From Bacteroidia bacterium (GTDB taxonomy: Bacteria; Bacteroidota; Bacteroidia; UBA4408): DNA of 59,278 nucleotides. Below are positions 1-10,123 of the stretch, piece by piece. The notes under the pieces are model-generated. The model worked only from the letters and a program-made list of their open reading frames with translations. It was not told where the DNA came from and did not search any database. How positions within the stretch are numbered: the stretch's first letter is position 1; each line of letters opens with the position of its first letter. The translations under genes and the position numbers were made by a program. The stretch is taken from NCBI GenBank assembly GCA_020845635.1, contig JADLFI010000011.1, positions 1 to 59,278 of the forward strand, read 5' to 3'.

Positions 1-78
1 CGCAGAGCCGAAACTGCGTGAACAAAGTCTGAGCGGAGCACCCAAAGGCTGTCGGGGTGTGGAGAATGTGCAGGACAG
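1..78 (+). promoter_or_regulatory. PK-Y leader module, copy 1
   Basis: The window opens with hairpin CGCAG/CTGCG (1-5 with 14-18). It is followed by an H-type pseudoknot: stem 1 CACCC (39-43) with GGGTG (55-59), and loop bases CTGTC (49-53) with GACAG (74-78). The same architecture recurs at 3100, 3544 and 6091 with different but still complementary bases in both stems. This copy is the most diverged and leads into a six-G/six-C hairpin (about 91-108) and a tRNA-like element rather than directly into a gene. Function unknown; a 5' leader or RNA-stability role is inferred. Confidence 0.6.
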
Positions 79-110
79 AGACTACAAAAGGGGGGCTTCG
101 TCCCCCCAAA

Positions 111-157
111 CTTCTTCTCTTGGAGATTAACACGGGTTCGATTCCTGTGGAAGAAGC
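111..157 (+). ncRNA. tRNA-like minihelix lacking D and anticodon arms (TLS-1)
   Basis: A 7-bp acceptor-like stem CTTCTTC (111-117) pairs with GAAGAAG (150-156). Between them lie a tiny TCT/AGA hairpin and a canonical T arm: CACGGG, T-loop TTCGATT (137-143), CCTGTG. There is no anticodon stem and no real D arm, so it cannot decode. Acceptor plus T arm is the known minimal substrate shape for RNase P and RNase Z, which makes a processing signal plausible. It lies 64 nt upstream of the next start codon. A decayed tRNA is the alternative. Confidence 0.6.
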
Positions 158-186
158 AATTTTTAACCGCGGCTATGCCGCACATT

Positions 187-212
187 CCTTGCCTGTTGTA
201 GGTCAAACAGGC
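187..212 (+). promoter_or_regulatory. PK-Z start-site pseudoknot, copy 1
   Basis: Stem 1 pairs CCT (187-189) with AGG (200-202). Stem 2 pairs GCCTGTT (191-197) with AACAGGC (206-212). The stems cross, giving an H-type pseudoknot that ends 9 nt before the ATG at 222, where a Shine-Dalgarno sequence would normally sit; none is present. Stem 2 differs in sequence from the other copies (for example GCAGTT/AACTGC) but stays complementary. A role in ribosome recruitment or translational control is inferred. Confidence 0.65.
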
Positions 213-221
213 ACCAAAACC

Positions 222-647
222 ATGGCTAATACCAACACCTCAGAAGCATTGTTTCTTTCTAAAAACAAGGCTTACCGAACAAAAAAAGGCTTTAACAAGC
301 TTTTGGAGGGAAATCCTTCTATGGACTTTGTAATCCGTATTGTGGAGGGTACGCCCTCGTTGCACACCCCGGAGACTTTAACCCAACTATTGTCCCATTA
401 CCGGGTCATGTACCACCTCAAAAAAATTATGCGTTTGCCATTTGCACAGGTGCAACAAACAATTGACGAATTATTGTATGTTTACCCCGCGCTGTCCGCT
501 TGGGGCATACTATTAATTTTATGGGAATTTTCATTCACAAGAACGCCCGAAGTATTCGGGGCGTTCATAGCCGCCAACCCCGATGAATATGAGGCACAGC
601 TCTTGCCAGAGCTGTGTCCTGAGTATGCTGCGTGGTTGGCAGCATAG
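222..647 (+). CDS. Helical-repeat protein of the NP-repeat family (141 aa)
   Basis: No function recognised. The ATG at 222 is chosen over the upstream ATG at 57 because the upstream part overlaps the tRNA-like element and PK-Z1 and translates into low-quality sequence. The product contains at least two copies of a roughly 30-residue unit with core F-x-x-(L/F)-x-x-x-NP-(x)5-9-(L/I)-(L/I), for example FNKLLEGNP and FGAFIAANP. This unit recurs in four other left-end proteins (5485, 6602, 7470, 8341), so the gene belongs to a local paralogous family, probably an alpha-solenoid used for binding. No signal peptide or membrane segment. The stop codon lies in an 8-bp hairpin (624-646) and PK-X follows. 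Confidence 0.7.
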   Translation: MANTNTSEALFLSKNKAYRTKKGFNKLLEGNPSMDFVIRIVEGTPSLHTPETLTQLLSHYRVMYHLKKIMRLPFAQVQQTIDELLYVYPALSAWGILLILWEFSFTRTPEVFGAFIAANPDEYEAQLLPELCPEYAAWLAA

Positions 648-660
648 ACTTTACACCCGA

Positions 661-698
661 AAACTCGCCAACGGAGTTTAGGGTTATACACAGCTGGT
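661..698 (+). ncRNA. PK-X pseudoknot after stop codon, copy A
   Basis: Stem 1 pairs AAACTC (661-666) with GAGTTT (674-679). Loop GCCAAC (667-672) pairs imperfectly (5 of 6) with the GCTGGT region (693-698). It starts 13 nt after the stop of the preceding gene. Related copies follow the genes ending at 1990, 5847, 7090 and 9814, and one lies near the gene ending at 3940. This is the weakest copy of the second stem. Confidence 0.5.
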
Positions 699-724
699 TA
701 GAGAGGGCTATATTGCCCCCATAC

Positions 725-797
725 AAGGCTAAGGATCGATCTTCTCGTAAAAGTGAGGTATTTACCCACGAAGAGATTAAGATCGATCCTAAGCCTT
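725..797 (+). ncRNA. Long hairpin LH, copy A
   Basis: A near-perfect inverted repeat: outer arms AAGGCT/AGCCTT, middle arms AGGATCGATCTT/AAGATCGATCCT, and an apical GTGaGGTA/TACCCAC stem. Three related hairpins occur at 4068, 5937 and 7167, each immediately upstream of a tRNA or tRNA-like element. Bases differ between copies while pairing is mostly kept. It may be a double-strand processing site or an RNA protection element. In this copy no tRNA-like element is recognisable downstream. Confidence 0.6.
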
Positions 798-1203
798 CTT
801 TAACGCCTTTCCATATAATGAGGATTGCGACAACTTCATTTCTTTTAGGAAGCCTCACAGCTTCCTATGAGATTCATTCCTGTTATAGTCAGGAATTTTC
901 TGTGAGTACAAACACAGATAGGCTACGTCGGGAGTAACGCCCCGCACGGAAGATATAACTTACAGGTGTTGTTCCACCTGTGGTATTCTCTTGGAGAATG
1001 GGTTATAATCTAGGCGACCCTAAGAGGTTGATAGTAGCTGAGTAGATGTAGCTAAATATGGCGGGCTACATCGAGGCACAGGAACAACGGCACAAGCTGA
1101 TGCCGATGACAAAAAGGAGAAGTCTCCACAGCAGCCATCAGGAATTTCCCCATAGTACTATAATATGGAGAAAGGAAATTCCTTTATTTCTTCACAAAAA
1201 AAA
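798..1203 (+). ncRNA. Hairpin-rich region without a convincing gene
   Basis: About 400 nt with no credible coding frame but a dense series of hairpins. Examples are GGAAGC/GCTTCC, ATTCCTG/CAGGAAT, TCTGTG/CACAGA, ACAGGTG/CACCTGT, ATTCTC/GAGAAT, GATGTAGC/GCTACATC, CGGCA/TGCCG and GGAATTTCC/GGAAATTCC. Such stacking suggests one large folded RNA, perhaps together with the PK-X and LH copies just upstream. Phages carry large ornate RNAs (GOLLD, ROOL) near tRNA genes, but I cannot establish homology by eye. Confidence 0.45.
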
Positions 1204-1204
1204 A

Positions 1205-1231
1205 ACTCAAGGCAAGAGTATAAAATGCTTT
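1205..1231 (+). promoter_or_regulatory. Small pseudoknot PK-W, copy 1
   Basis: ACTC (1205-1208) can pair with GAGT (1216-1219), and loop bases AAGGC with downstream GCTTT (1227-1231), giving a small H-type pseudoknot. A nearly identical element lies at 10091-10117, 6 nt before the ATG of the gene at 10124. Here the end of the element is 6 nt before a TTG at 1238 in frame with the next gene, leaving that alternative start open. Confidence 0.45.
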
Positions 1232-1291
1232 TAAATTTTGTCCCAGAAAATTTTAAATTCTGGGCGGCTTTGTAATAGGGGTGTCATAGCT

Positions 1292-1354
1292 AACACCCTA
1301 ATATTCTCCAAAACCCGCATTGTCCTGTTCACAGGGCAAAAGGTGGTGGAGAAT
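1292..1354 (+). promoter_or_regulatory. Start-site pseudoknot abutting the ATG at 1355
   Basis: AACACC (1292-1297) pairs with GGTGGT (1342-1347), and ATTCTCC (1303-1309) pairs with GGAGAAT (1348-1354). The helices cross, and an inner hairpin GTCCTG/CAGGGC lies between. The order is the same as in PK-Z (two 5' strands, then two 3' strands), but this element touches the start codon directly. A TTG start at 1238 would make it coding, so the call depends on the start. Confidence 0.45.
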
Positions 1355-1990
1355 ATGTTCGTTTCTACTCCCCATTCCTACGACAAGAATGGGAAATGGA
1401 GTTACAGTACTTACACTGTGACTCTAAATGAGGGGGTAGAGACGACTGACATTGCGACCATTCCCTACACCGGGGGTCATTACTGCAAGGACATTTCGTC
1501 CTTGGCGGCAATGTCCAAGGAGTTAGGGATTGAGTCCACTACCCCCGCCGCCCAGAAAAAATTTTTCCAAGAGGTATTGCCCAAAGAGTGGGCACGCCAC
1601 TTGGAATACCTACAAAAACTCGACACTCTATATGCGGAGGGTGTTGAGGATACCGTCCGCATAGAATTTTTTGGAGATTATCGCAACCGCCGTTGTGGTA
1701 ATCTCCACCTCCTTCTAAATGGGGAAGTGTACCACCACCTTCACAACCCCATGCCCGAACTGGTCGTGCTGGAAAGCATGGACCGCGTTCCCGGCTACGG
1801 AGGGGGTCACGAAAATTACACCATCGTTGTCCCAGCGGACACTTTGGTGGAAGAGCTTTACGAGAGCAATTACGGCGGAGATGCTCTCGATACACGCGGC
1901 TATGTCTACAACCGCGACACCCAACGATGGAAACAGCAAGACGGCAGCGAGGGTAATACACCCTTCGCAGACTTGCTGAAAGGGTTGTAG
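1355..1990 (+). CDS. Hypothetical protein (211 aa)
   Basis: I do not recognise this protein. The ATG at 1355 is preferred because the upstream in-frame stretch from TTG 1238 overlaps hairpins and reads as unstructured, Arg/Cys-rich sequence. The product is soluble, rich in Tyr, Glu and Gly, with no signal peptide or membrane helix. It looks like a single mixed alpha/beta domain: an early beta-like stretch around SYSTYTVTLNEG and a Gly-rich GYGGGHEN segment near residue 150. It is flanked by a start-site pseudoknot and by PK-X copy F after the stop, so it is packaged like the other left-end cassettes. Confidence 0.65.
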   Translation: MFVSTPHSYDKNGKWSYSTYTVTLNEGVETTDIATIPYTGGHYCKDISSLAAMSKELGIESTTPAAQKKFFQEVLPKEWARHLEYLQKLDTLYAEGVEDTVRIEFFGDYRNRRCGNLHLLLNGEVYHHLHNPMPELVVLESMDRVPGYGGGHENYTIVVPADTLVEELYESNYGGDALDTRGYVYNRDTQRWKQQDGSEGNTPFADLLKGL

Positions 1991-1999
1991 ACGTAGCTT

Positions 2000-2045
2000 C
2001 CCCCCAACTCGACAGCGGAGTTGATTAAGGGGGTTGACAGCTGTT
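2000..2045 (+). ncRNA. PK-X pseudoknot after stop codon, copy F
   Basis: Stem 1 pairs CAACTC (2005-2010) with GAGTTG (2018-2023), with an extra CCCCC/GGGGG closing helix (2000-2004 with 2029-2033). Loop GACAGC (2011-2016) pairs with GCTGTT (2040-2045). In most other copies the loop is GCCAAC pairing GTTGGT, so both partners changed together. It begins 9 nt after the stop at 1990. Confidence 0.65.
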
Positions 2046-2598
2046 GCACACTGGCTCTGCATAAACCAGATACTTTCACCCCTGCATTTTGCTTGAGGTA
2101 CTTAACTAGGGCTATATGCCCACTTACCGCGCAGTTTCGAGCTTCTGCGCTCCCAAATTAAAAAGCATCTTTTGGAGTTAGCAATCTCCGCCAAAAAATC
2201 CCTGCCAAAGGACAGGAAAATTGCAACAGGGATTTATCCCCACCTTACCATGTACTAAGAAATTGCGCGAGGCTAACCGCGCCGTATAAATAGTTAATAG
2301 GGACATCAGCAATCCCGCCAAAACTGAATTGTCCTTGAAGATTCCGAATTGCTTATTGTGAGGTAGTAGGATTTCAAGGACAAAGGTGCACTGCCAGAGA
2401 AGTCAACTGAGCCGCGATACTTTAAGGCGGCAACTTTTCGGCAGGTAATATCCCTACAGTTATGGATTCTGTAGGTGGAAAAAGAAAAAATCCAAAAGCA
2501 AGCTGGCTCTGCTTAAACCAGCCCTTTCCAAAACACCCAACAAGTTGCGCGGGTTGGTGTGTGGACATAGCGCGTCCCTGTTTTCATGCAGGGCTTTT
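2046..2598 (+). ncRNA. Candidate large structured RNA (about 550 nt, no gene)
   Basis: There is no plausible gene here but many strong helices. Examples are GCGCAG/CTGCGC (about 2139-2152), AAATCCCTG/CAGGGATTT enclosing smaller stems, GCGCG/CGCGC, an 11-bp TTGTCCTTGAA/TTCAAGGACAA, CTGCC/GGCAG enclosing CCGC/GCGG, and CTACAG/CTGTAG. A hairpin built on CTGGCTCTGC with a TAAACCAG 3' side occurs twice, near 2050 and near 2503. The region lies between PK-X copy F and a tRNA-like element. Size and setting recall GOLLD/ROOL-type phage RNAs, but this is not established. Confidence 0.55.
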
Positions 2599-2647
2599 TG
2601 CTGCCATCACGTTCGGGTGGTTAAGAGTTCGACTCTCTTTGGCAGCA
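2599..2647 (+). ncRNA. tRNA-like element without anticodon arm (TLS-2)
   Basis: Acceptor-like TGCTGCC (2599-2605) pairs with GGCAGCA (2641-2647). Inside are one short arm ATCAC/GTGGT and a T-type arm AAGAG, loop TTCGACT (2628-2634), CTCTT. One unpaired T precedes the 3' acceptor strand. There is no anticodon arm. It is followed by a GGGG/CCCC hairpin (about 2654-2666) and the ATG at 2684. Confidence 0.55.
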
Positions 2648-2683
2648 CTCACCGGGGGTAAAACCCCACAATTTATTTTTGTC

Positions 2684-3034
2684 ATGTTTATTAACATATC
2701 AAATCACCCTACGTCCAAATGGGGTGATGAGCAGCTAAAAGCTGCTCAGGAGTTCGGGGAACTCCTTGATAAACAATTCCCCAACATTCTTCCGCACGCC
2801 TCAGCTGAGGACGTGCAAGCCATGGCTGCGAACATGGCTGAGGAAGTAACTGAAAATGGCACCAACGCAGTGGTGCACGTCATGGGCGAAATGGGTTATA
2901 CCCATGCCCTCGTTACAACCTTGAAAGCAGCTGGCGTTCGCTGCTTTCACAGCACAACGGAACGCAAAGTAACCGAGAATGCGGACGGTTCAAAAACAGT
3001 AGTTTTTGAATTTGTCCAATTCAGAAGCTACTAA
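2684..3034 (+). CDS. Small NHP-motif protein, possibly Csx15-like (116 aa)
   Basis: The start at ATG 2684 is chosen because the longer upstream frame overlaps the tRNA-like element. The N-terminus (N-I-S-NHP, then W, then QLKAAQEFGE) and the C-terminal STTER...VFEFVQFRSY pattern recall a family of small Rossmann-like proteins annotated near CRISPR loci as Csx15. I recognise the pattern from memory only. Mid-protein VVHVMGEMGYTHALVTTLKAAG would be the nucleotide-binding-like beta-alpha unit. There is no CRISPR array or cas gene in the window, so any CRISPR role is unsupported. A ligand-binding or counter-defence role is possible. Confidence 0.6.
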   Translation: MFINISNHPTSKWGDEQLKAAQEFGELLDKQFPNILPHASAEDVQAMAANMAEEVTENGTNAVVHVMGEMGYTHALVTTLKAAGVRCFHSTTERKVTENADGSKTVVFEFVQFRSY

Positions 3035-3099
3035 AATTTTCCCCTAATCGTAGGGGTGTGCCCTCATATAATGATTCTTATGAAAGAGGGAATTTTTAT

Positions 3100-3259
3100 C
3101 GCAGAAAACTCTAAACTGCGTGAACAAATGTTGAGTCGAACTATCTTAGTCCATTGAGATAGGGGATTGTGAATGATGGACACGTACAGAGCCTAAAAAA
3201 CTCTTATGTAAGTTACCTTTCTTGAATCCTACCAAATAAACCCTAGGAGAGGGTATAAT
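3100..3259 (+). promoter_or_regulatory. PK-Y leader module, copy 2
   Basis: Hairpin CGCAG (3100-3104)/CTGCG (3116-3120) is followed by an H-type pseudoknot. Stem 1 is CTATCT (3141-3146)/AGATAG (3157-3162), and loop GTCCAT (3149-3154) pairs with ATGGAC (3176-3181). Then come a GAG/CTC hairpin and, just before the gene, ACCCT-AGGAG-AGGGT (3240-3254), which holds a Shine-Dalgarno sequence in its loop. The second pseudoknot helix differs from copies 3 and 4 but is complementary in each. An RNA switch or translational leader is inferred. Confidence 0.7.
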
Positions 3260-3535
3260 ATGGTAAATTTCCGCCTCATGAGGTTGAGCAACCTCCCAGC
3301 AGCGGTCACCTCCCACGTGGAGCATGACCGACAAGGGAGTGCTATCACCTCCACCACCATTCATGCGCAGGGCGTGAATGGTGAGATTTTCACTAAAACA
3401 CTCGCCATCGGCGAGGTGTTCCGCCCTGCTTCCATCGGCTTTGAGTTGATGTGGTGTTTCGTAAGTGCGCACGTCACCGTGACGGCGCACGGCACTGCGC
3501 CAACTCAAAGTTTCCAGACCACCTACTTCGACTAG
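3260..3535 (+). CDS. Small beta-rich protein, leader-linked family member 1 (91 aa)
   Basis: Function unknown. It is a short, Thr/His/Val-rich protein with alternating hydrophobic pattern, so probably all-beta. Its outline (strand, then GxxF, a hydrophobic VxVxxxVTV stretch, and a C-terminal polar tail ending in Y-F-D) roughly matches the proteins at 6253 and 8983, which end TTVYQ and TKIYY. They may form a divergent local family. It is preceded by PK-Y copy 2. The stop codon opens the 3' arm of a 7-bp hairpin CCACCTA/TAGGTGG (3519-3539). Confidence 0.6.
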   Translation: MVNFRLMRLSNLPAAVTSHVEHDRQGSAITSTTIHAQGVNGEIFTKTLAIGEVFRPASIGFELMWCFVSAHVTVTAHGTAPTQSFQTTYFD

Positions 3536-3543
3536 GTGGCTGG

Positions 3544-3697
3544 CGCAGAGCCGAAACTGCGTGAACAAAGTCCGTGCGAACTATCTTAGTTATCGAGATA
3601 GGGGAATGTGAATGATAACATGTGCAGAGCCTAACCAGCTCTTACGTACCTTACATTTTTTTAATTTCCTTTATAACTCCCTAGGAGAGGAGAAAAA
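3544..3697 (+). promoter_or_regulatory. PK-Y leader module, copy 3
   Basis: Hairpin CGCAG (3544-3548)/CTGCG (3557-3561), then a pseudoknot with stem 1 CTATCT (3581-3586)/AGATAG (3596-3601) and loop GTTATC (3589-3594) pairing GATAAC (3614-3619). Next are a GAGC/GCTC hairpin and a purine-rich AGGAGAGGAG site, partly paired with CTCC, 6 nt upstream of the ATG at 3698. The changed GTTATC/GATAAC helix is the clearest compensatory change in the family. Confidence 0.7.
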
Positions 3698-3940
3698 ATG
3701 GAATTGAAAAGGGACAAAAAAGTTCCCAAGTTCATCGGCTGGGACGCCAATGAATTGGGGTACATAACTGTCCCCAACGGCGAACCAAAGTCGCCGTCTT
3801 CGCCATTCAAAAAACTGGTATCTTATATGCCAGTAACAAATGATGAAGACGGCGACTTGGACAGCTTCTGCCTTGAAGTAGTTGATATAGACGATAAAAT
3901 TCGTCTAATCAACATCCTAACAGGGCAGTATGTTGATTAA
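3698..3940 (+). CDS. Hypothetical protein (80 aa)
   Basis: Unrecognised small acidic protein without signal peptide or membrane helix. It has a basic N-terminus (residues 1-11) and a strongly acidic second half (NDEDGDLDS, then VVDIDDK), which suggests a compact beta-rich domain. The start is supported by the AGGAG-rich site in the PK-Y leader. A separate strong pseudoknot (3949-3993) follows the stop almost immediately, and PK-X copy B follows that. Confidence 0.6.
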   Translation: MELKRDKKVPKFIGWDANELGYITVPNGEPKSPSSPFKKLVSYMPVTNDEDGDLDSFCLEVVDIDDKIRLINILTGQYVD

Positions 3941-3948
3941 TCGCTGTC

Positions 3949-3993
3949 CCACTACTTGTACTGCCGAAGTAGTGGAGGCATAATTCAGGCAGT
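3949..3993 (+). ncRNA. H-type pseudoknot directly after stop codon
   Basis: Stem 1 is a 9-bp helix CCACTACTT (3949-3957)/AAGTAGTGG (3967-3975). Loop bases ACTGCC (3960-3965) pair with GGCAGT (3988-3993). It begins 8 nt after the stop at 3940. It is single copy, so there is no covariation, but the helix lengths make chance unlikely. Confidence 0.6.
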
Positions 3994-3996
3994 AAA

Positions 3997-4039
3997 CTTT
4001 AAATTCGCCAACGGAGTTTAAAGTTAATACACAGTTGGT
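3997..4039 (+). ncRNA. PK-X pseudoknot, copy B
   Basis: Stem 1 pairs CTTTAAATTC (3997-4006) with GAGTTTAAAG (4014-4023), 10 bp including a G-T wobble. Loop GCCAAC (4007-4012) pairs with GTTGGT (4034-4039). It is followed by hairpin ATGGC/GCCAT (4045-4060) and long hairpin LH-B. Confidence 0.7.
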
Positions 4040-4067
4040 GAGAAATGGCTGAATTGCCATCACAGAA

Positions 4068-4136
4068 GCCTTAGAATCGATTTTCTTTTAAAAGTGGTAT
4101 CTTACCACCAAAAAGAATAAGAATCGATTCTAAGGC
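4068..4136 (+). ncRNA. Long hairpin LH, copy B
   Basis: Arms GCCTTAGAATCGATT and AATCGATTCTAAGGC (15 bp) are extended by a T-rich/A-rich helix and topped by GTGGTA/TACCAC. It lies 8 nt upstream of tRNA-like element TLS-B, the same order as in copies C and D. Confidence 0.7.
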
Positions 4137-4144
4137 ATTTATAT

Positions 4145-4204
4145 CGCTTTCTTAGCTCAGTGGGCATACTTTAAAAAACAGACTGATAGTTTTTGGGAAA
4201 GTGA
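4145..4204 (+). ncRNA. Degenerate tRNA-like element (TLS-B)
   Basis: CGCTTTC (4145-4151) pairs with GAAAGTG (4197-4203) through one wobble. The TTAGCTCAGTGG start matches the tRNA D-arm motif, with GCTC pairing GGGC over a very short loop. A T-position arm AAAAAC/GTTTTT follows but lacks the TTCGATT loop. There is no anticodon arm. It occupies the tRNA slot of the LH-tRNA-PK-Z module. It may instead be a tRNA 5' half damaged when the adjacent ATPase gene arrived. Confidence 0.4.
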
Positions 4205-4276
4205 TAAAGCCTATACACAGCAAAATCTAATAGAGCGTTTTCAAAAAATGAAACAGCTAATCAAAAACCTAACAAC

Positions 4277-5410
4277 ATGATTAAACAAATAACCGTAAAA
4301 AATTATAAAATAGTGCAAGACCAAGCACTAAATATTACTAACTTAAACCTACTGACTGGTATTAACAGCACAGGAAAAAGTTCGTTTATCCAAGCACTAT
4401 TATTGCTCCGACAGTCTTATGAACAGGGCTACCTAAGCGGCAGAACCAAAAGGATTTATTTGGGCGAAGAGGGGCGAAGTTTTTTGGTGCGCCCCGGCAA
4501 CGTAGCCGATGTATTCAATTGGAATGCCCAAAAAAATGATAGCATTGCTTTTCATATTACAGACCAGCAAGGGGCTGAATATGGTTTTAAAAGTAAAAAA
4601 TATATTTTAAATGATGCCGATAATCTTGCTTTTGCGGGAACTTTTACAAGCCCTGCAAATATAAGCGATACGCCTTTATTTAACGACCGGTTTCAGTATT
4701 TAGGGGCAAATCGGATAGAACCACAAGAAAGGTATCCCGTATTTGTTACAAATACCCAAAAAGATTTGGGCACCGACGGACGCTTTGCGCCTGCTTATTT
4801 AGAAGCCTATGGGCAAGAGGATATTGCCATTGATGCCCTACGACATCGCGACTCAAAATCTAAAACACTTAAAGAACAAGTAGCAAAATGGCTAAACCTT
4901 ATTAGTGCTGATATTGACCTAAGCGTAAAAAAAATAGGCAACTCACATATAGAACTTAATTATTCGTATTTTAACGACCCTACTTTTAATATTAAACCCC
5001 AAAATATGGGTTTTGGTGTGGTCTACGCGCTGCCCATTGTTGTAGCCCTGCTTGCCGCCAAGCCCGGTGATTTAATCCTGATTGAAAACCCCGAAACCCA
5101 CCTACACCCCTACGGACAAGCCAAACTCGCCGAGCTAATGGCACTTGCCGCCCAAAACGGCGTGCAACTACTCATAGAAACGCATAGCGACCATATTGTA
5201 AATGGCACTTTGGTGGCTTGCAAACGATTTGAAAAGGATAATACCAAAGGTATAGATAAACGAAATGTAAGTATTTACTACTTTGAACGCGCAGGCATTA
5301 ACAGCCGTGTTACGCAAATATCTGTATTGGCGGGGGGGAAGATAGATGTAGAACCAAATGGGTTTTTTGACCAAATTAAGTCAGACTTAGAAATAATAAT
5401 GGGGTTTTAA
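4277..5410 (+). CDS. AAA ATPase of the OLD/RecF-like (DUF3696-type) family (377 aa)
   Basis: An SMC/RecF-type P-loop ATPase. Walker A is GINSTGKSS (about residues 29-37). The signature region is followed by Walker B and catalytic Glu in LILIENPETHLHP (about residues 263-275), then the His switch in LLIETHSDHIVNG. Such proteins are often found in defence or anti-phage modules, usually with a nuclease partner; none is adjacent. The gene sits between a tRNA-like element and PK-Z copy 2, a gap of only 4 nt in the two sister modules, so it looks inserted. It is followed directly by the leader of the next native gene. Role unknown: superinfection exclusion is one possibility. Confidence 0.85.
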   Translation: MIKQITVKNYKIVQDQALNITNLNLLTGINSTGKSSFIQALLLLRQSYEQGYLSGRTKRIYLGEEGRSFLVRPGNVADVFNWNAQKNDSIAFHITDQQGAEYGFKSKKYILNDADNLAFAGTFTSPANISDTPLFNDRFQYLGANRIEPQERYPVFVTNTQKDLGTDGRFAPAYLEAYGQEDIAIDALRHRDSKSKTLKEQVAKWLNLISADIDLSVKKIGNSHIELNYSYFNDPTFNIKPQNMGFGVVYALPIVVALLAAKPGDLILIENPETHLHPYGQAKLAELMALAAQNGVQLLIETHSDHIVNGTLVACKRFEKDNTKGIDKRNVSIYYFERAGINSRVTQISVLAGGKIDVEPNGFFDQIKSDLEIIMGF

Positions 5411-5448
5411 AATTCTATCTTTTTGAAAAAACAAATTCATAACCACAA

Positions 5449-5476
5449 ACCTTTGGCAGTTGTATGGTCAAACTGC
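5449..5476 (+). promoter_or_regulatory. PK-Z start-site pseudoknot, copy 2
   Basis: ACC (5449-5451) pairs with GGT (5466-5468), crossing GCAGTT (5456-5461) with AACTGC (5471-5476). The structure ends 8 nt before the ATG at 5485, and there is no Shine-Dalgarno sequence in between. Confidence 0.65.
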
Positions 5477-5484: not shown

Positions 5485-5847
5485 ATGAGAAATGAATTGG
5501 TCGGAGATTCTTGCGAGCTCGCAGCAGCATACGCCCTGCTAAATCGCTCCAAAAAGAGATTTTTGGAAAGTGCCCAAGCGTGGGACTTTCCATACTTCTT
5601 TCGGGACATGCCCGACATAGCATGTAACGAGGAAGTAGTAAGAAAATTTCTAGGAACTCAACCATGCCATGAGTTCCTGCGCACAGCTCTCGAGATGTGC
5701 GTTCACCCAATCATGCTAAAAGTCTTCGAGGCATGGCTCGAAGGCAAGCCCTCCGAAAAGGAGGTGAAATGGTTAAAAGAGTATTGCAAAGACTTTTTAG
5801 CTGCCTACCCAGAGGCGGCTGAAAAAGTTAACAGTCTCCCACAATAA
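5485..5847 (+). CDS. NP-repeat helical protein (120 aa)
   Basis: A member of the local repeat family, entirely alpha-helical by residue pattern. Recognisable repeat cores are VVRKFLGTQP and VFEAWLEGKPSEKEVKWL. It is shorter than its relatives at 6602 and 7470. No signal peptide or membrane segment. PK-Z copy 2 lies 8 nt upstream of the ATG and PK-X copy C begins 7 nt after the stop, so the gene is bracketed by both RNA families. Function unknown; protein binding is the usual role of such solenoids. Confidence 0.7.
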   Translation: MRNELVGDSCELAAAYALLNRSKKRFLESAQAWDFPYFFRDMPDIACNEEVVRKFLGTQPCHEFLRTALEMCVHPIMLKVFEAWLEGKPSEKEVKWLKEYCKDFLAAYPEAAEKVNSLPQ

Positions 5848-5854
5848 GCAACGC

Positions 5855-5898
5855 ATCTACACACTCGCCAACGGAGTGTGTAGATTAAGGACAGTTGG
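5855..5898 (+). ncRNA. PK-X pseudoknot after stop codon, copy C
   Basis: Stem 1 is a 12-bp perfect helix: ATCTACACACTC (5855-5866) with its complement (5874-5885). Loop GCCAAC (5867-5872) pairs with GTTGG (5894-5898). Stem 1 bases differ from every other copy while remaining fully paired. Confidence 0.75.
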
Positions 5899-5936
5899 AA
5901 TGCTGACATGTGCAGGGCTTAAAAGCCCTTAAAATC

Positions 5937-6005
5937 GCCTTAGAATCGATTTTCTTTTGAGAGTGGTATATTACCATCAAAAAGAATAAGAATCGATTCT
6001 AAGGC
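5937..6005 (+). ncRNA. Long hairpin LH, copy C
   Basis: Arms GCCTTAGAATCGATT/AATCGATTCTAAGGC with a T-rich/A-rich extension and an apical GTGGTA/TACCAT pair. It is preceded by hairpin AGGGCTT/AAGCCCT (5914-5929). It ends 8 nt before the intact tRNA at 6014, which anchors the module order. Confidence 0.7.
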
Positions 6006-6013
6006 ATTTATAC

Positions 6014-6090: not shown

Positions 6091-6252
6091 AACCTTGTGC
6101 AGTTGTATAGGTTAAACTGCATGAACAAAAACTGTGCGAACTATCTTAGTCTATTGAGATAGGGAGAAAGTGAATGATAGACACGTGCAGAACTTAACAA
6201 GTTCTTATGTAAGTTACATTTTTTTAAATTTCATTAGCCTCAAAAAGAGAAA
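6091..6252 (+). promoter_or_regulatory. Fused PK-Z (copy 3) and PK-Y (copy 4) leader
   Basis: PK-Z: AACCT (6091-6095)/AGGTT (6109-6113) crossing GCAGTT (6099-6104)/AACTGC (6115-6120), starting 4 nt after the tRNA. PK-Y: CTATCT (6141-6146)/AGATAG (6157-6162) with loop GTCTAT (6149-6154)/ATAGAC (6177-6182), then hairpin GAACTT/AAGTTC. The GCAG/CTGC helix of PK-Z takes the place of the CGCAG/CTGCG hairpin that opens the other PK-Y copies, so the two families may share an origin. Confidence 0.7.
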
Positions 6253-6495
6253 ATGAAAAGTCTAAAAATCCGTAATACTCACTATGGCGATGAGTATTAC
6301 TGGGAACATACTCGCCATACCATCTATGCAACAGATGGAAATAATAATGAGACCGTAGAGTTGCAGGACGGTCAAGAGTTCGATAGCTCCAAGTTGGCTT
6401 TTAAGCCGACAAAGATAGTTGTCGAGGCTATCACTCGAATCATCACCCCAGATGATTCTGGTGACCAAAAACCTCAAACTACTGTTTATCAGTAG
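6253..6495 (+). CDS. Small beta-rich protein, leader-linked family member 2 (80 aa)
   Basis: Unknown function. The middle segment (NNNETVELQDGQEF, then LAFKPTKIVVEAITRII, then TTVYQ at the end) aligns by eye with the protein at 8983 (NENEEILITLKKGEKF, LPFKPKVVIVETILRRI, TKIYY), so the two are paralogues. The shared core FKPxxxxVExIxRI suggests a small beta-sandwich or ferredoxin-like fold. Preceded by the fused PK-Z/PK-Y leader; a long pseudoknot starts 2 nt after the stop. Confidence 0.7.
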   Translation: MKSLKIRNTHYGDEYYWEHTRHTIYATDGNNNETVELQDGQEFDSSKLAFKPTKIVVEAITRIITPDDSGDQKPQTTVYQ

Positions 6496-6496
6496 T

Positions 6497-6532
6497 TTGT
6501 CTGTGTAATTCCGAGACAAGCGGGAATTACAC
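6497..6532 (+). ncRNA. Compact pseudoknot directly after stop codon
   Basis: Stem 1 TTGTCT (6497-6502)/AGACAA (6514-6519). Loop GTGTAATTCC (6503-6512) pairs over 10 bp with GGAATTACAC (6523-6532). The two helices are contiguous, ideal for coaxial stacking. It is single copy and begins 2 nt after the stop codon. Confidence 0.65.
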
Positions 6533-6564
6533 AATAAGAACAGCTGCAATATTTTCAAACTTCA

Positions 6565-6594
6565 AACCTTTGGCGTTAGTATGGTTAAATCGCT
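6565..6594 (+). promoter_or_regulatory. PK-Z start-site pseudoknot, copy 4
   Basis: AACC (6565-6568)/GGTT (6583-6586) crosses GGCG (6572-6575)/CGCT (6591-6594). The second helix is GGCG/CGCT here versus GCAGTT/AACTGC elsewhere. It ends 7 nt before the ATG at 6602. An ATG inside the element (6581) is in frame, but the spacing rule of the other copies favours 6602. Confidence 0.65.
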
Positions 6595-6601
6595 TGAAAA
6601 G

Positions 6602-7090
6602 ATGAACTCACAAGTCATCTATTTTGAAATGCTGGAAAACCCAGCACTTGCCCCCTCAATGGTGGGCGAATTTCTCAAACTCTCCCCAGAGGATTGGGAA
6701 ATCGCAGAAGCTCTTGAAAACTTCGGCAACAATGTCGAGTTCATGCAAGAGTTTCTTGCAAACCTGCCAACAATTGAAACACTTCTTGAAGTGTTTCAAG
6801 ATTATCGAAGCATTCCCGCATGTTTCGAGGAATTAAAAGCGTTGGTTCTGGCGAAAGCCAACGCAGAAGAGATTTATCTCTTCATGCAGAGTGCAAACGG
6901 TTTCGCCACCGAGGACGTAATGGCAGCATTCTTCGCCGCCAACCCCGACATCGAAACTTTGAGAGTTGCTGCTAGGTCAGCTATAGGAACTCTCGAAATA
7001 TCTTGCACATTAAGGAATGCTTTCTTTGCTGCTAAACCCAGTAAAAAGCAGCTCAAGCTCTTTGAGTTTGAGAACTCCTATCGCGACTAA
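6602..7090 (+). CDS. NP-repeat helical protein (162 aa)
   Basis: All-helical repeat protein of the local family. Repeat cores visible in order include MVGEFLKLSPEDWEIAEAL, MQEFLANLPTIETLLEVF, MAAFFAANPDIETLRVA and FFAAKPSKKQLKLF, spaced roughly 30-35 residues apart. The start at 6602 is chosen because the upstream in-frame ATG lies inside PK-Z copy 4. No export signal. It is bracketed by PK-Z upstream and PK-X copy D, which begins 8 nt after the stop. Function unknown; a binding scaffold is inferred. Confidence 0.72.
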   Translation: MNSQVIYFEMLENPALAPSMVGEFLKLSPEDWEIAEALENFGNNVEFMQEFLANLPTIETLLEVFQDYRSIPACFEELKALVLAKANAEEIYLFMQSANGFATEDVMAAFFAANPDIETLRVAARSAIGTLEISCTLRNAFFAAKPSKKQLKLFEFENSYRD

Positions 7091-7097
7091 AAAAACT

Positions 7098-7140
7098 CCC
7101 TAAATTCGCCTGCGGAATTTAGGGTTACTACACAGCAGGC
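7098..7140 (+). ncRNA. PK-X pseudoknot after stop codon, copy D
   Basis: Stem 1 CCCTAAATTC (7098-7107)/GAATTTAGGG (7115-7124). Loop GCCTGC (7108-7113) pairs with GCAGGC (7135-7140). Relative to the usual GCCAAC/GTTGGT, two positions changed on each side. Hairpin GATGGC/GCCATC (about 7145-7162) follows. Confidence 0.78.
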
Positions 7141-7166
7141 AAGAGATGGCTGAATTGCCATCATAC

Positions 7167-7238
7167 AAGGCTTAGAATCAATTTTCTTTTAAAAGCGGGT
7201 ACAACCCTTAAAAAGAATAATAATCAATTCTAAGCCTT
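7167..7238 (+). ncRNA. Long hairpin LH, copy D
   Basis: Outer arms AAGGCTTAG/CTAAGCCTT, T-rich/A-rich inner helix and an apical GGGT/ACCC. Both arms carry AATCAATT where copies B and C carry the palindrome AATCGATT, so the change gives two mismatches instead of a compensated pair. It ends 4 nt before TLS-D. Confidence 0.68.
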
Positions 7239-7242
7239 ATAT

Positions 7243-7299
7243 ACCCTTTTAGCTCAATGGTAGAGCATAAAGATGTAGGTTCGATTCCTACAAAGGGTA
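7243..7299 (+). ncRNA. tRNA-like element with no anticodon arm (TLS-D)
   Basis: 57 nt: acceptor ACCCTTT/AAAGGGT, D arm GCTC/GAGC with loop AATGGTA, then only eight bases, then T arm GTAGG/CCTAC with loop TTCGATT, discriminator A. Apart from the missing anticodon arm it matches the intact tRNA at 6014 closely. It cannot be a decoding tRNA. All remaining stems pair perfectly, unlike a randomly decaying pseudogene. A processing signal or an aminoacylation mimic is possible. Confidence 0.75.
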
Positions 7300-7303
7300 C
7301 TAT

Positions 7304-7333
7304 AACCTTTGGCAGTTGTATAGGTTAAACTGT
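7304..7333 (+). promoter_or_regulatory. PK-Z start-site pseudoknot, copy 5
   Basis: AACCT (7304-7308)/AGGTT (7322-7326) crosses GCAGTT (7312-7317)/AACTGT (7328-7333). It starts 4 nt after TLS-D and ends 8 nt before the ATG of a 28-codon frame at 7342, keeping the family's spacing even though the next long gene starts at 7470. Confidence 0.65.
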
Positions 7334-7341
7334 ATTGTATC

Positions 7342-7428
7342 ATGAGAACTTCTGTGAGAATTTTAGTGTGTGCAAATGATTTCAATCGCCCATTTTGCTC
7401 ATCTTACGACCATTTGAAAAATGTATAA
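7342..7428 (+). CDS. Possible small peptide (28 aa)
   Basis: A 28-codon frame starting MRTSVRILVC and ending at the TAA at 7426-7428. The only reason to call it is position: its ATG lies 8 nt after PK-Z copy 5, exactly where the other PK-Z copies place start codons. It could be a short gene, a leader peptide for the gene at 7470, or the remnant of a larger gene. Composition alone gives no support. Confidence 0.35.
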   Translation: MRTSVRILVCANDFNRPFCSSYDHLKNV

Positions 7429-7469
7429 CAAAAAATTCATAATAAAATCCCACAAGGAGATGGGGCACC

Positions 7470-8291
7470 ATGAAAAATATAATTTTTAGTAGCATAGGTG
7501 TTGCTACAAGAACACTTGTAGAAATGGTAAGAACTTTTAAGGAGTTGCGAACTCAGGATATGCTAAAAATATTTCTCGAAAGGGAAATGACAGCAAGAGA
7601 GTTCCTAATCTTTATGCAGTTCTACCCAGAATATCATAACCAAGACAATTTACACAAATTCTTATCTTTGCAACCAACTGCAAAAGAAATAAAAGAACTG
7701 TGTGTATGGACAGGGTTTGAATATACGCCAATAGTTGAAGAAGCATTTTTAAATGCTGCCCCAACAGTTGATGATGTGGGCGAGTTATTAGCGCGCCTAA
7801 AAAATGTTAACAAAAAAAAGTTATGGGAAAAATTCTTTGTCTTAAATCCCAATCCTAAAAAATTGGAGTTTCTTATGGCAAATTATCCAGTATTGCAAAT
7901 TGATAAAGTCTTAGACTTGTTCTTAAAAGGCAATCCAACCTTAGAAGAAGTTGAAAGACTTATTAATACATTCTGGAATTATTGTCCAGAGAAATTAATA
8001 AACAGGTTCTTTGAATTAGAACCAACAGAAAATGATATTTTTAAGCTTTTATGCGGCTATGATTGGGCACGTACCTCATGTATCATAGAAAAAATAGAAG
8101 TTGAAAAAGTAAGTGCAAAATTCTGGTTACACATGACAAATCTCTACCATTGTAAAGGTAATCCAGCAATCATAACAGCATTTTTCAAAGCAAACCCAAC
8201 AAAAGAACAGTTGGATGAGTTTTGGAAAGATGCTTCCCTTGAAAAGAAATTATTAGCAGAGACTATACTAAAACAATTAAAAGAAAAATAA
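7470..8291 (+). CDS. NP-repeat alpha-solenoid protein (273 aa)
   Basis: The longest and clearest member of the repeat family, with about eight units of near 30 residues. Cores include FLSLQPTAKEIKEL, FLNAAPTVDDVGELL, FFVLNPNPKKLEFL, FLKGNPTLEEVERLI, FFELEPTENDIFKLL and FFKANPTKEQLDEFW. The pattern is two helices per unit with a conserved F-(L/F)-x3-P-T turn. Codon and base use are AT-rich, unlike the GC-richer relatives to the left. An AGGAG in the loop of hairpin CCCA/TGGG (7449-7464) precedes the ATG. No catalytic motif; a scaffold or inhibitor that binds a partner protein is inferred. Confidence 0.8.
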   Translation: MKNIIFSSIGVATRTLVEMVRTFKELRTQDMLKIFLEREMTAREFLIFMQFYPEYHNQDNLHKFLSLQPTAKEIKELCVWTGFEYTPIVEEAFLNAAPTVDDVGELLARLKNVNKKKLWEKFFVLNPNPKKLEFLMANYPVLQIDKVLDLFLKGNPTLEEVERLINTFWNYCPEKLINRFFELEPTENDIFKLLCGYDWARTSCIIEKIEVEKVSAKFWLHMTNLYHCKGNPAIITAFFKANPTKEQLDEFWKDASLEKKLLAETILKQLKEK

Positions 8292-8296
8292 CTAAA

Positions 8297-8327
8297 TTTA
8301 GGGACTGCTTCTGAGGCAGTCCCTAAA
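8297..8327 (+). terminator. Strong hairpin between repeat genes
   Basis: TTTAGGGACTGC (8297-8308) pairs with GCAGTCCCTAAA (8316-8327), 12 bp with a seven-base loop, then CTTTTC. It looks like an intrinsic terminator or mRNA 3'-end stabiliser, although the T-run is short. It lies 6 nt after the stop at 8291. Confidence 0.6.
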
Positions 8328-8340
8328 CTTTTCATAATAC

Positions 8341-8865
8341 ATGAACTATACAATAACACAAGTAGAAAAGATGTCTTTTAAAGATATGATATATTTAGTA
8401 CGTAAGTATAAAACATTTCGTACACAAGAGTTTATGGAGGTATTTTTAGATAAAAGTCCCAAATTTAAGCATGTGTTTAAACTTCTGTTCTATTGTAAAA
8501 AGTTCAGAACAGAACAAATGCTAGATTTTATGCTTACATTTGATTTGTACCCAATTCAAATAATAAACATTTCTAAGATTTTAAAATATACATTCACAAA
8601 TAAATTAGAAAAAGCCTTTTTTAAGGCTGAACCTAATATACATAATATAGTGATGTTATTGCAAAATTGTGCAGATGCTCGTAAGCCAAAAATTATTCAA
8701 ATTCTTCTGTCTTTTAATCCAACATCGTGTTTTTTATGCGACTTGATTAATAGCCAAGAATGGGCACAAATTCCAGAAATAATTCAAGCCTTTTTTGACA
8801 GTACTCCCTCAAAAAAGGAAATAAATATAATTAAGAAATTAGACATTCCTAAAAAAAATAATTAA
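8341..8865 (+). CDS. NP-repeat helical protein, divergent (174 aa)
   Basis: A diverged repeat-family member directly following the 7470 gene. Repeat cores are weaker but present: FMEVFLDKSPKFKHVFKLL, KAFFKAEPNIHNIVMLL, ILLSFNPTSCFLCDLI and QAFFDSTPSKKEINII. Very AT-rich and Lys-rich. The N-terminal FRTQEFMEVFL resembles LRTQDMLKIFL of the 7470 protein, which supports tandem duplication. No signal peptide. It is followed by a weak hairpin-containing spacer rather than PK-X. Confidence 0.75.
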   Translation: MNYTITQVEKMSFKDMIYLVRKYKTFRTQEFMEVFLDKSPKFKHVFKLLFYCKKFRTEQMLDFMLTFDLYPIQIINISKILKYTFTNKLEKAFFKAEPNIHNIVMLLQNCADARKPKIIQILLSFNPTSCFLCDLINSQEWAQIPEIIQAFFDSTPSKKEINIIKKLDIPKKNN

Positions 8866-8982
8866 CCACCCGAAAGGGTTTTGAGTGTAGACAAACTCAT
8901 GTAAAATTAAGGAAACAACAGAAAGAGAAAAACAATTACAAAATTTTATTAACAATCATATTCACCCTTCACCATACAAAGC

Positions 8983-9246
8983 ATGAAATTTTACAGCCTC
9001 GCCGACCTTCCAGAAGAGTTTGTAACATTCTCTCGAGAGTTTCCAAATCGTAAAGAATACTCAAAAAAGAGAATCTTTGCGCAAAATGAGAATGAAGAAA
9101 TTCTCATAACTCTTAAAAAAGGAGAAAAATTTGGTTTAGATTTTTTACCCTTTAAGCCAAAAGTAGTAATTGTGGAAACTATTCTACGAAGAATTTCCAA
9201 CAATAAGAACATAGAAGTAAAAACAGATACAAAAATTTACTATTAA
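8983..9246 (+). CDS. Small beta-rich protein, family member 3 (87 aa)
   Basis: Paralogue of the 6253 product. Shared features are NE-x-E-I-L-I-T-L-KKGEKF, LPFKPKVVIVETILRRI and a terminal TKIYY. Unlike its relative it is AT-rich and has no PK-Y upstream. The 117-nt spacer holds only weak hairpins such as ACCC/GGGT and TGAGT/ACTCA. Function unknown. Confidence 0.7.
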   Translation: MKFYSLADLPEEFVTFSREFPNRKEYSKKRIFAQNENEEILITLKKGEKFGLDFLPFKPKVVIVETILRRISNNKNIEVKTDTKIYY

Positions 9247-9271
9247 TGCCCCAATTTTCTTACCTTAAAAA

Positions 9272-9296
9272 CCTTGGCGATGATTTAGGAAATCGC
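9272..9296 (+). promoter_or_regulatory. PK-Z start-site pseudoknot, copy 6
   Basis: CCT (9272-9274) pairs with AGG (9287-9289), crossing GCGAT (9277-9281)/ATCGC (9292-9296). It ends 8 nt before the ATG at 9305. The GCGAT/ATCGC helix is a third sequence version of the same helix. Confidence 0.6.
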
Positions 9297-9304
9297 TTTT
9301 AACT

Positions 9305-9814
9305 ATGGAGTATAAACTCTTTTCGGACATAGTTAGCACCGAAAGAGTACTGCGAGAAATGGAGGAAAAAAGCCTTCTCCTCATTGCTGCTTGTGAGCAG
9401 TTTAAAACAATGGGGGAAAGAGCTTTGGCAAAATCCACTGTTCTTATGGCGAAAAGAAACTTCGCTAAAACAGAGGAGGAAGTCAACAAACTCCAGATGT
9501 ATCTTGATGTGTATCGATTTCGAGACCATATCAAGAAAGCAGACTCAGAAATGTCAAAAGACTTCATGCGCACGGACATTCTGTCTGCTGCAAAAAGAAG
9601 TCTTGCTGCCAAAAGGATAGTAAATCTGTATGGCAGACCACAACAAAAAGAAGCCATGAATTTGATTACTTCGGCAATTAATGAAACGGCAGATTTTACC
9701 ACTGAGGAGACATTAAAAGCAAATGCTCTCAATGTTCTTGACTTAACTCTTAAAATGCAGTTGGTTCTTGCAACTGTTGCTTTTGAGACAACAACTCAGA
9801 TGGTATTTGAATAA
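9305..9814 (+). CDS. Alpha-helical hypothetical protein (169 aa)
   Basis: Unrecognised, predicted almost entirely helical, Ala/Lys/Glu-rich, no membrane segment. It lacks the NP-repeat core, although the segment GRPQQKEAMNLI weakly resembles AKPQQKEILQKL in the protein at 11331, so the two may be distant relatives. It is bracketed by PK-Z copy 6 (8 nt upstream) and PK-X copy E (6 nt downstream), like the repeat-family genes. Confidence 0.65.
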   Translation: MEYKLFSDIVSTERVLREMEEKSLLLIAACEQFKTMGERALAKSTVLMAKRNFAKTEEEVNKLQMYLDVYRFRDHIKKADSEMSKDFMRTDILSAAKRSLAAKRIVNLYGRPQQKEAMNLITSAINETADFTTEETLKANALNVLDLTLKMQLVLATVAFETTTQMVFE

Positions 9815-9820
9815 AAAAAC

Positions 9821-9863
9821 ATCTCAATTTTGCCAACGGAAATTGAGATTACACACAGTTGGT
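9821..9863 (+). ncRNA. PK-X pseudoknot after stop codon, copy E
   Basis: Stem 1 ATCTCAATTT (9821-9830)/AAATTGAGAT (9840-9849), 10 bp. Loop GCCAAC (9832-9837) pairs with GTTGGT (9858-9863). Directly downstream lies a truncated macrodomain, so this may be a recombination junction. Confidence 0.72.
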
Positions 9864-9872
9864 GAGAAGGGG

Positions 9873-10001
9873 CTAGGTCTTCCTTATAAAATAGGCTGTG
9901 GACTAGGCGGAGGAGATTGGAACAAGGTGAAAGAAATAATTGAGAATTTTGCATTAAATCACCCAAACATAAATATAATAATTTATGAACCGTTACAATG
10001 A
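9873..10001 (+). pseudogene. C-terminal remnant of a macrodomain gene
   Basis: The frame reads GLPYKIGCGLGGGDWNKV (about residues 2-19 of the fragment), then helix EIIENFALNHP and a final beta strand INIIIYEP. LPY-KIGCGLxGGDW is the signature near the end of phage and bacterial macrodomain (ADP-ribose-binding) proteins. The first two thirds of the domain and any start codon are missing: upstream sequence is PK-X copy E. It is therefore a deletion remnant. Intact or near-intact macrodomain genes occur at 41075 and 35383. Confidence 0.7.
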
Positions 10002-10086
10002 GGACTTAGATCCTTCAATAATGCCAAGAATTTGGCTCATCATCATCGTATTAACCATTACAGCTATATTGCTGTGTCTCAACTAA
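9985..10086 (+). CDS. Small single-span membrane protein (33 aa)
   Basis: A 33-codon frame beginning MNRYNEDLDP with a membrane helix IWLIIIVLTITAILLC (about residues 17-32). It overlaps the end of the macrodomain remnant by 17 nt. The charged N-terminus plus C-terminal hydrophobic anchor is typical of small phage membrane peptides. No visible ribosome site. Role unknown; a holin-like or signalling function cannot be judged. Confidence 0.55.
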   Translation: MNRYNEDLDPSIMPRIWLIIIVLTITAILLCLN

Positions 10087-10090
10087 TTAA

Positions 10091-10117
10091 ACTCAAGGCG
10101 AGAGTATAAAATGCTTT
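10091..10117 (+). promoter_or_regulatory. Small pseudoknot PK-W, copy 2
   Basis: ACTC (10091-10094) with GAGT (10101-10104 region) and loop AAGGC with GCTTT (10113-10117). It is almost identical to 1205-1231 and ends 6 nt before the ATG at 10124. Two copies with one changed loop base give no covariation, so the fold is tentative, but the repeat itself is certain. Confidence 0.5.
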
Positions 10118-10123
10118 TTTATC

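What the first reader, a model, noticed from the sequence alone, without database searches (positions are those of the whole stretch)
1..10120. A 10-kb block of small genes separated by repeated pseudoknot modules
Reading complementary segments by eye, I find at least 17 pseudoknots in 10 kb. They fall into four multi-copy families (PK-X x6, PK-Y x4, PK-Z x6, PK-W x2) plus three single-copy ones. Each family differs in bases between copies but, apart from the near-identical PK-W pair, keeps complementarity in both crossing helices. They occur only around small orphan genes and stop abruptly at about 10.1 kb. I know no described phage system with this arrangement. Function (mRNA capping, processing, translation) is inference.
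Basis: seen in the sequence. Interest (0 to 1): 0.92.

Follow-up and report, generated by a model that had tools for sequence, protein, structure and literature searches.

The report
Phage genes bracketed by RNA pseudoknots
In one virus of bacteria, a 10-kb block of small genes is laid out so that the messenger RNA is folded almost everywhere, with recurring knot-like folds just before start codons and just after stop codons and shrunken tRNA look-alikes between genes; one of these knots also sits in front of tRNA genes in unrelated viruses, and it matches no family in the public RNA library.

Summary
The core observation is real. Both crossing helices covary. Pattern search found it in 12 IMG/VR phage contigs with no detectable protein similarity to this phage over the stretches held, always 4-9 nt upstream of a tRNA gene. 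A model built only from those copies ranks four window copies as its four best window hits. Rfam 15 has no match. PK-Y is larger than claimed (about 10 copies) and lies 7-9 nt before an ATG in up to five cases. PK-Z has 4 clear copies, not 6. PK-W is a near-identical pair, better read as a hairpin start or promoter element. Compact pseudoknots number 14-15 in the block against about 1 in shuffles.

Beyond the finding: three anticodon-less mini-tRNAs and one tRNA-Met punctuate the block. The coding sequences are also folded far beyond synonymous-codon shuffles, except one acquired ATPase gene. Four ORFs carry the same bracket: PK-Y, ORF, PK-X.

Most likely reading (inference): early transcripts of a crAss-like phage are cut at tRNA and hairpin signals, and pseudoknots protect each messenger's ends. 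A translational role for PK-Y is the main rival. Nothing here tests function directly.

The parts
653..700 (+). PK-X copy 1, 7 nt after the stop of ORF 222-647; one A.C mismatch in helix 2
1998..2052 (+). PK-X copy 2 (helix 2 ACAGC/GCUGU), 9 nt after the stop of ORF 1355-1990
3949..3994 (+). single-copy pseudoknot directly upstream of PK-X copy 3, the same order as pseudoknot plus PK-X in IMG/VR loci
3993..4046 (+). PK-X copy 3
5853..5901 (+). PK-X copy 4, 7 nt after the stop of ORF 5485-5847; best hit of the IMG/VR-only model (E 3e-6)
7094..7147 (+). PK-X copy 5 (helix 2 CCUGC/GCAGG), 6 nt after the stop of ORF 6581-7090
9818..9868 (+). PK-X copy 6, 5 nt after the stop of ORF 9305-9814
187..212 (+). 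PK-Y copy, 9 nt before ATG 222
2045..2069 (+). PK-Y-type pseudoknot
2496..2522 (+). PK-Y-type pseudoknot, same CUC/AAA loops as 2045
3085..3120 (+). PK-Y-type pseudoknot upstream of PK-Z
3538..3561 (+). PK-Y-type pseudoknot upstream of PK-Z; its 3' part is repeated at window position 1
5449..5476 (+). PK-Y copy, 8 nt before ATG 5485
6091..6120 (+). PK-Y copy, directly after tRNA-Met
6565..6594 (+). PK-Y copy, 7 nt before in-frame ATG 6602
7304..7333 (+). PK-Y copy, directly after mini-tRNA; 8 nt before ATG 7342 of a 28-codon ORF
9272..9296 (+). PK-Y copy, 8 nt before ATG 9305
38..78 (+). PK-Z copy (both helices differ from the others)
3141..3181 (+). PK-Z copy in leader of ORF 3260
3581..3619 (+). 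PK-Z copy in leader of ORF 3698; one base pair deleted on both sides
6141..6182 (+). PK-Z copy in leader of ORF 6253
111..157 (+). tRNA-like element: 7-bp acceptor and T arm, no anticodon arm
   Evidence: the minimum-energy fold does not show the T arm
2600..2646 (+). tRNA-like element, 47 nt, no anticodon arm
7243..7299 (+). mini-tRNA: acceptor, D and T arms, no anticodon arm; Rfam tRNA 55.4 bits
6014..6087 (+). complete tRNA-Met (CAU)
725..795 (+). long hairpin copy 1 (z -7.4)
4066..4138 (+). long hairpin copy 2 (z about -9)
5935..6007 (+). long hairpin copy 3, just before tRNA-Met (z about -8)
7166..7238 (+). long hairpin copy 4, just before mini-tRNA (z about -7)
1203..1232 (+). PK-W copy 1: hairpin then TATAAAATG; start or promoter element rather than a proven pseudoknot
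10089..10118 (+). PK-W copy 2, at the edge of the block
222..647 (+). ORF of a small paralogue family; PK-Y and PK-X on its two sides
5485..5847 (+). paralogous ORF, PK-Y and PK-X on its two sides; coding structure z -4.9
6581..7090 (+). paralogous ORF, PK-Y and PK-X on its two sides; coding structure z -5.6
9305..9814 (+). ORF with PK-Y and PK-X on its two sides; coding structure z -7.1
4277..5410 (+). AAA ATPase (PADLOC NsnB-like), apparent later insertion; its coding sequence has no excess structure (z -0.7)

Best explanation
The block is the early + strand region of a crAss-like phage whose transcript is folded nearly everywhere. Each small cistron is a separable messenger with a pseudoknot at its 5' side (PK-Y, in some cases PK-Y then PK-Z plus hairpins) and another at its 3' side (PK-X, then a hairpin). 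Between cistrons lie long hairpins and tRNA or anticodon-less tRNA-like elements. Proposed mechanism: the host's tRNA-processing enzymes (RNase P at the 5' edge, RNase Z at the 3' edge) and probably RNase III at the long hairpins cut the primary transcript; PK-X then shields the new 3' end and PK-Y/PK-Z the new 5' end against exonucleases and 5'-end-dependent nucleases; base-paired coding sequence adds resistance in between. Shown: the elements, their order, covariation of PK-X and the long hairpin, the spacing to start and stop codons, excess folding of coding sequence, and PK-X in front of tRNA genes elsewhere. Inferred: that the region is transcribed as one RNA, that the tRNA-like elements are cut, that the pseudoknots protect ends.
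For: PK-X: covariation; recovery by a model made only from IMG/VR copies; all 12 IMG/VR copies 4-9 nt upstream of a tRNA gene. tRNA-like elements: exactly four on the block's + strand, none on its - strand or on either strand of the other 49 kb; the mini-tRNA reaches Rfam's tRNA threshold without an anticodon arm. Long hairpins: z -7 to -9 with compensatory pairs, two of four directly before a tRNA or mini-tRNA. Spacing: PK-X starts 5-9 nt after five stop codons, PK-Y ends 7-9 nt before up to five ATGs. Coding structure: native block ORFs mean z -4.9 and 35% excess over synonymous shuffles, against 18% in the rest of this phage's + operon, 12% in phi14:2 and 4% in T7. The inserted ATPase gene lacks it, an internal control. 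The + strand folds better than the - strand (p 0.003).
Against: No transcript data. Two PK-X copies (655, 9820) have no tRNA-like element close downstream. The copy at 2000 is 550 nt from the next one, and the copy at 3995 is followed only by a truncated tRNA-like start. In IMG/VR phages PK-X does not follow an ORF, so its tie to stop codons is peculiar to this phage. PK-Y spacing to ATG fits translation as well. The 44-nt element does not fold as a tRNA-like shape by minimum energy alone.
Confidence: 0.42

Rival explanations
1. Translation control: PK-Y is a ribosome-facing initiation element taking the place of a Shine-Dalgarno sequence, much as pseudoknot PK1 of tmRNA sits just upstream of the resume codon; PK-X acts on the terminating ribosome.
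For: PK-Y ends 7-9 nt before ATG in 5 of 6 strict copies (chance about 2.5e-6; three unambiguous cases if only clear ORF starts count). Topology and A-rich third loop resemble tmRNA PK1 (from memory). PK-X starts 5-9 nt after five stop codons.
Against: The PK-Y copy at 6091 and those before PK-Z are not followed by an ORF start at that distance; PK-X in IMG/VR phages is next to tRNAs, not ORFs.
Confidence: 0.28
2. The pseudoknot units are themselves the product: small RNAs released by tRNA processing that bind a host or phage factor, akin to other ornate phage RNAs near tRNA islands such as GOLLD and ROOL.
For: In L017 and L024 the unit pseudoknot plus PK-X lies between two tRNA genes with no ORF; one PK-X phage also carries GOLLD; two ~540-nt non-coding stretches of the block are strongly structured (z -4.3 and -5.7).
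Against: In the window the units flank ORFs at near-fixed distances; no Rfam match.
Confidence: 0.14
3. DNA-level cause: hairpins arise or are perfected by template switching, or act in DNA (promoters, recombination), without RNA function.
For: PK-W is nearly identical and looks like a promoter or start motif; inverted repeats are dense on both strands.
Against: Near-fixed spacing to start and stop codons; compensatory change in crossing helices; G.U pairs that work only on the + strand; + strand folds better; tRNA-like elements only on +.
Confidence: 0.08
4. PK-Y is a self-cleaving ribozyme at tRNA 3' ends, as HDV-like theta ribozymes are.
For: Two copies begin just after tRNA or mini-tRNA 3' ends in a phage of a Bacteroidota-like host, the setting of theta ribozymes (PMC10879173).
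Against: No P3 stem and no conserved cytosine before the last strand; no Rfam HDV-type hit.
Confidence: 0.04

Closest known systems
Phage T7 early region cut by RNase III into separate messengers (from established knowledge, not tested here)
   Same: early phage messengers separated by processing hairpins
   Different: no pseudoknots or tRNA-like elements known there; T7 genes show little excess coding structure in the same test
tRNA punctuation of mitochondrial transcripts, and MALAT1 mascRNA (from memory)
   Same: tRNA or tRNA-like shapes between or after RNAs could direct RNase P and RNase Z cutting
   Different: here in a phage, with pseudoknots on both sides; cutting not shown
Theta ribozymes (PMC10879173)
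   Same: small pseudoknotted RNA at tRNA 3' ends in phages of Bacteroidota
   Different: PK-Y lacks P3 and the catalytic cytosine; PK-X lies 5' of tRNAs, not 3'
GOLLD and ROOL RNAs (PMC12286853)
   Same: structured phage RNAs near tRNA islands; GOLLD found in one PK-X phage
   Different: PK-X is about 45 nt, repeated, and has no Rfam match
tmRNA
   Same: anticodon-less tRNA-like part plus H-type pseudoknots; phi14:2 carries a predicted tmRNA in its early region
   Different: no tmRNA found in the window; ORFs are proteins of 80-273 aa
Genome-scale ordered RNA structure of RNA viruses (from memory)
   Same: coding sequence folded beyond synonymous shuffles
   Different: a dsDNA phage, and strongest in one block

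Membership tests
PK-X family (defined here) | S1 hairpin with loop U-Y-G-(S2a)-G-G-A, and S2 closing with a downstream strand preceded by ACA | tested here: met
   six window and 12 IMG/VR copies
PK-X family (defined here) | recognised without use of window sequences | tested here: met
   the four best window hits of the IMG/VR-only model are PK-X copies; only the best (E 3e-6) is significant alone
Theta (HDV-like) ribozyme | P3 stem nested inside the P1/P2 pseudoknot | tested here: not met
   the span between S2a and S1b is 0-7 nt in PK-Y
Theta (HDV-like) ribozyme | catalytic cytosine at the start of J4/2 | tested here: not met
   third loops are A, AA, AAA, GAAA, UAAA, UCA, CA, AAAU; no conserved C
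Theta (HDV-like) ribozyme | self-cleavage | not testable with these tools
   needs an in vitro assay
tmRNA | match to tmRNA models | tested here: not met
GOLLD / ROOL | match to Rfam model | tested here: not met
   (window)
tRNA (element 7243-7299) | acceptor, D and T arms | tested here: met
   55.4 bits
tRNA (elements 111, 2600, 7243) | anticodon arm | tested here: not met
   44-57 nt, anticodon arm absent
Crassvirales (the phage) | giant virion RNA polymerase with DFDxD signature beside a g065-like protein | tested here: met
   ADFDVDS motif; neighbour 22.7% identical to phi14:2 g065 over 28% of its length, E 3e-4; same plan as phi14:2. The RNAP itself gave no database hit
Crassvirales (the phage) | capsid, portal and terminase of the order | not tested
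   not in the window

The most novel reading that the evidence does not exclude
A phage early region organised as RNA-armoured, tRNA-punctuated cistrons: messengers are bracketed by two dedicated pseudoknot families that set their ends and ribosome landing site, anticodon-less mini-tRNAs serve only as cutting signals, and the coding sequence itself is selected for folding, perhaps against RNA-cutting host defences. PK-X would be a tRNA-linked end-protection module shared across unrelated phages.
Probability: 0.25. Interest if true: 0.9.

Novelty: new variant of a known kind. Interest (0 to 1): 0.72.

Why it matters
PK-X is a covariation-supported RNA family absent from Rfam 15 that links a crAss-like phage block to tRNA arrays of other phages. 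If the processing-and-protection reading is right, it would show a DNA phage building RNA-virus-like structure into its early messengers and using tRNA mimics as punctuation; that is directly testable by end mapping and chemical probing, and it bears on how phage messengers survive host nucleases and RNA-targeting defences.

Tried and rejected
A free H-type pseudoknot scan is uninformative (112 hits in 10 kb). A PK-Z pattern hit in IMG/VR (L006) lies inside a coding gene with no other module: chance. The PK-Z near-match on contig C41 lies in a protease-like gene: chance. Protein searches for relatives of the early and DNA polymerase genes found none close; the bacterial-genome search hit cellular PolI. 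The PK-X pattern in GTDB gave 3 chance coding hits without S1 or tRNA. A relaxed pattern with purine/pyrimidine freedom in helix 2 gave about 90 further IMG/VR stretches; of the 81 matches read, none had a good S1 plus a tRNA. PK-X is therefore rare, and this attempt to find new helix-2 variants failed. None in 148 related genomes. Not in phi14:2, whose corresponding early region is not unusually folded. Model R1 was built with a mistyped structure and was not used. No Bacteroidota -33/-7 promoters in the block; sigma-70-like hits are at chance level.
Full report
Setting. The window is contig C11 of a 3.05-Mb, 60-contig assembly. Positions 10-41 kb are a compact + strand operon (DNA polymerase, helicase, primase, thymidylate synthase, ribonucleotide reductase); 41.6-59.3 kb is on the - strand and holds a 1416-aa protein similar to phi14:2 g065 (E 3e-4) beside a 4488-aa protein with TGADFDVDS. 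Cellulophaga phage phi14:2 (Crassvirales) has the same plan. The 10-kb block therefore corresponds by position to the early region of a crAss-like phage. That it is transcribed early, by the virion RNA polymerase, is inference.

Check of the observation. A naive pseudoknot search means little. Under tight geometry (short loops, A before the last strand) the block has 14-15 compact H-type pseudoknots against 0-1 in shuffles and 0.6 per 10 kb downstream. Families: PK-X six copies; PK-Y about ten by plan, five or six by sequence; PK-Z four; PK-W two near-identical copies plus a hairpin relative at 3239.

PK-X is a real and wider family. The pattern CGCCAACGGA-N8-24-CACAGTTGG, taken from the window, matched ten IMG/VR loci, and a second pattern added two. 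All twelve have a paired S1 in the same columns, which the first pattern does not require, and all lie 4-9 nt upstream of a tRNA gene (in L021 and L022 the tRNA is recognised by eye, not by ARAGORN, and L022 ends inside it). L025 and L026 carry compensatory changes in both helices (UCAAC/GUUGA and ACUC/GAGU). On 17 copies the covariation score exceeds all 500 shuffles and all slides. Caveats: the first pattern fixed helix 2 in ten of the IMG/VR copies, so helix-2 variation comes from window copies and L025/L026; related copies inflate cell counts; R-scape was not available. A model from ten IMG/VR copies alone ranks four window PK-X copies first (best 28.8 bits, E 3e-6; the other three at E 0.26-1). 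No protein similarity (tblastn E<1e-3) was found between 45 window proteins and 160 kb of these loci. In L025 and L026 a TTGACA-17-TATACT promoter-like sequence lies just upstream of pseudoknot, PK-X and tRNA-Thr (read by eye), so there the unit would lead a tRNA operon.

Anatomy in the window. PK-X starts 5-9 nt after five stop codons. PK-Y ends 9, 8, 7, 8 and 8 nt before ATGs at 222, 5485, 6602, 7342 and 9305; 6602 is a later in-frame ATG of its ORF and 7342 starts only a 28-codon ORF, so three cases are unambiguous. Four ORFs (222, 5485, 6581, 9305) have PK-Y before and PK-X after; the first three are paralogues, so part of the repetition is cassette duplication. A long hairpin with compensatory pairs recurs four times, twice directly before a tRNA or mini-tRNA. 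tRNA-like elements occur exactly four times on the block's + strand and nowhere else in the window on either strand: one complete tRNA-Met and three of 44-57 nt without an anticodon arm. The element at 7243 passes the Rfam tRNA threshold. PK-Y follows tRNA-Met and the 7243 element directly.

Structure inside genes. In 120-nt windows the block folds better than shuffles (mean z -2.09; rest of the + operon -0.61). Against synonymous-codon shuffles the twelve native ORFs average z -4.9 and 35% excess; 25 ORFs downstream average z -2.6 and 18%; phi14:2 12%; T7 4%. The ATPase gene at 4277-5410, an NsnB-like defence-type gene that appears to interrupt a tRNA-like element at about 4145, shows none (z -0.7). 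The + strand folds better than the - strand (p 0.003).

Interpretation. The order 3' pseudoknot, hairpins, tRNA-like cut site, 5' pseudoknot, ORF fits processing of a long early transcript into protected single-gene messengers. Translation control by PK-Y is the strongest rival and is compatible with it. Theta ribozymes (PMC10879173) and tmRNA were tested and not met. GOLLD and ROOL are relatives in setting only (PMC12286853). I found no paper in the library describing this arrangement, but the library is partial.

Confidence. That PK-X is a real RNA family shared with tRNA arrays: about 0.93. That PK-Y and PK-Z form as drawn: about 0.8. That anticodon-less elements are processing signals: about 0.5. 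The whole mechanism: about 0.4.

Noticed in passing
L141 4031-4500 (NC_021806.1, phi14:2): ARAGORN predicts a tmRNA (tag GSSVQKLAMVA) in a non-coding stretch of the early region of phi14:2; no tmRNA is annotated there in the record.
   Followed up: partly
L017 578-830 and L024 (reverse strand): A roughly 250-nt RNA framed by a perfect 7-bp tRNA acceptor stem and a T arm, like a tRNA with a giant insert, in phage tRNA arrays.
   Followed up: no
window 796-1330 and 2053-2598: Two non-coding stretches of about 540 nt with strong predicted structure (z -5.7 and -4.3) and no Rfam match.
   Followed up: partly
window 4145-5440: An NsnB-like AAA ATPase gene seems inserted in a tRNA-like element, removing its 3' half.
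   Followed up: partly
window 1204, 3239, 10090: Small hairpin followed by TATAA(A/T)ATG; candidate promoter or start element.
   Followed up: partly
window 1-35: The contig begins inside a copy of the repeat at 3544, so the block may extend beyond the assembled end.
   Followed up: no
L015 5247-5710: A GOLLD RNA lies in the same phage tRNA array as a PK-X copy.
   Followed up: no
window 20619-21371: ThiF/E1-like protein encoded in the + strand operon.
   Followed up: no
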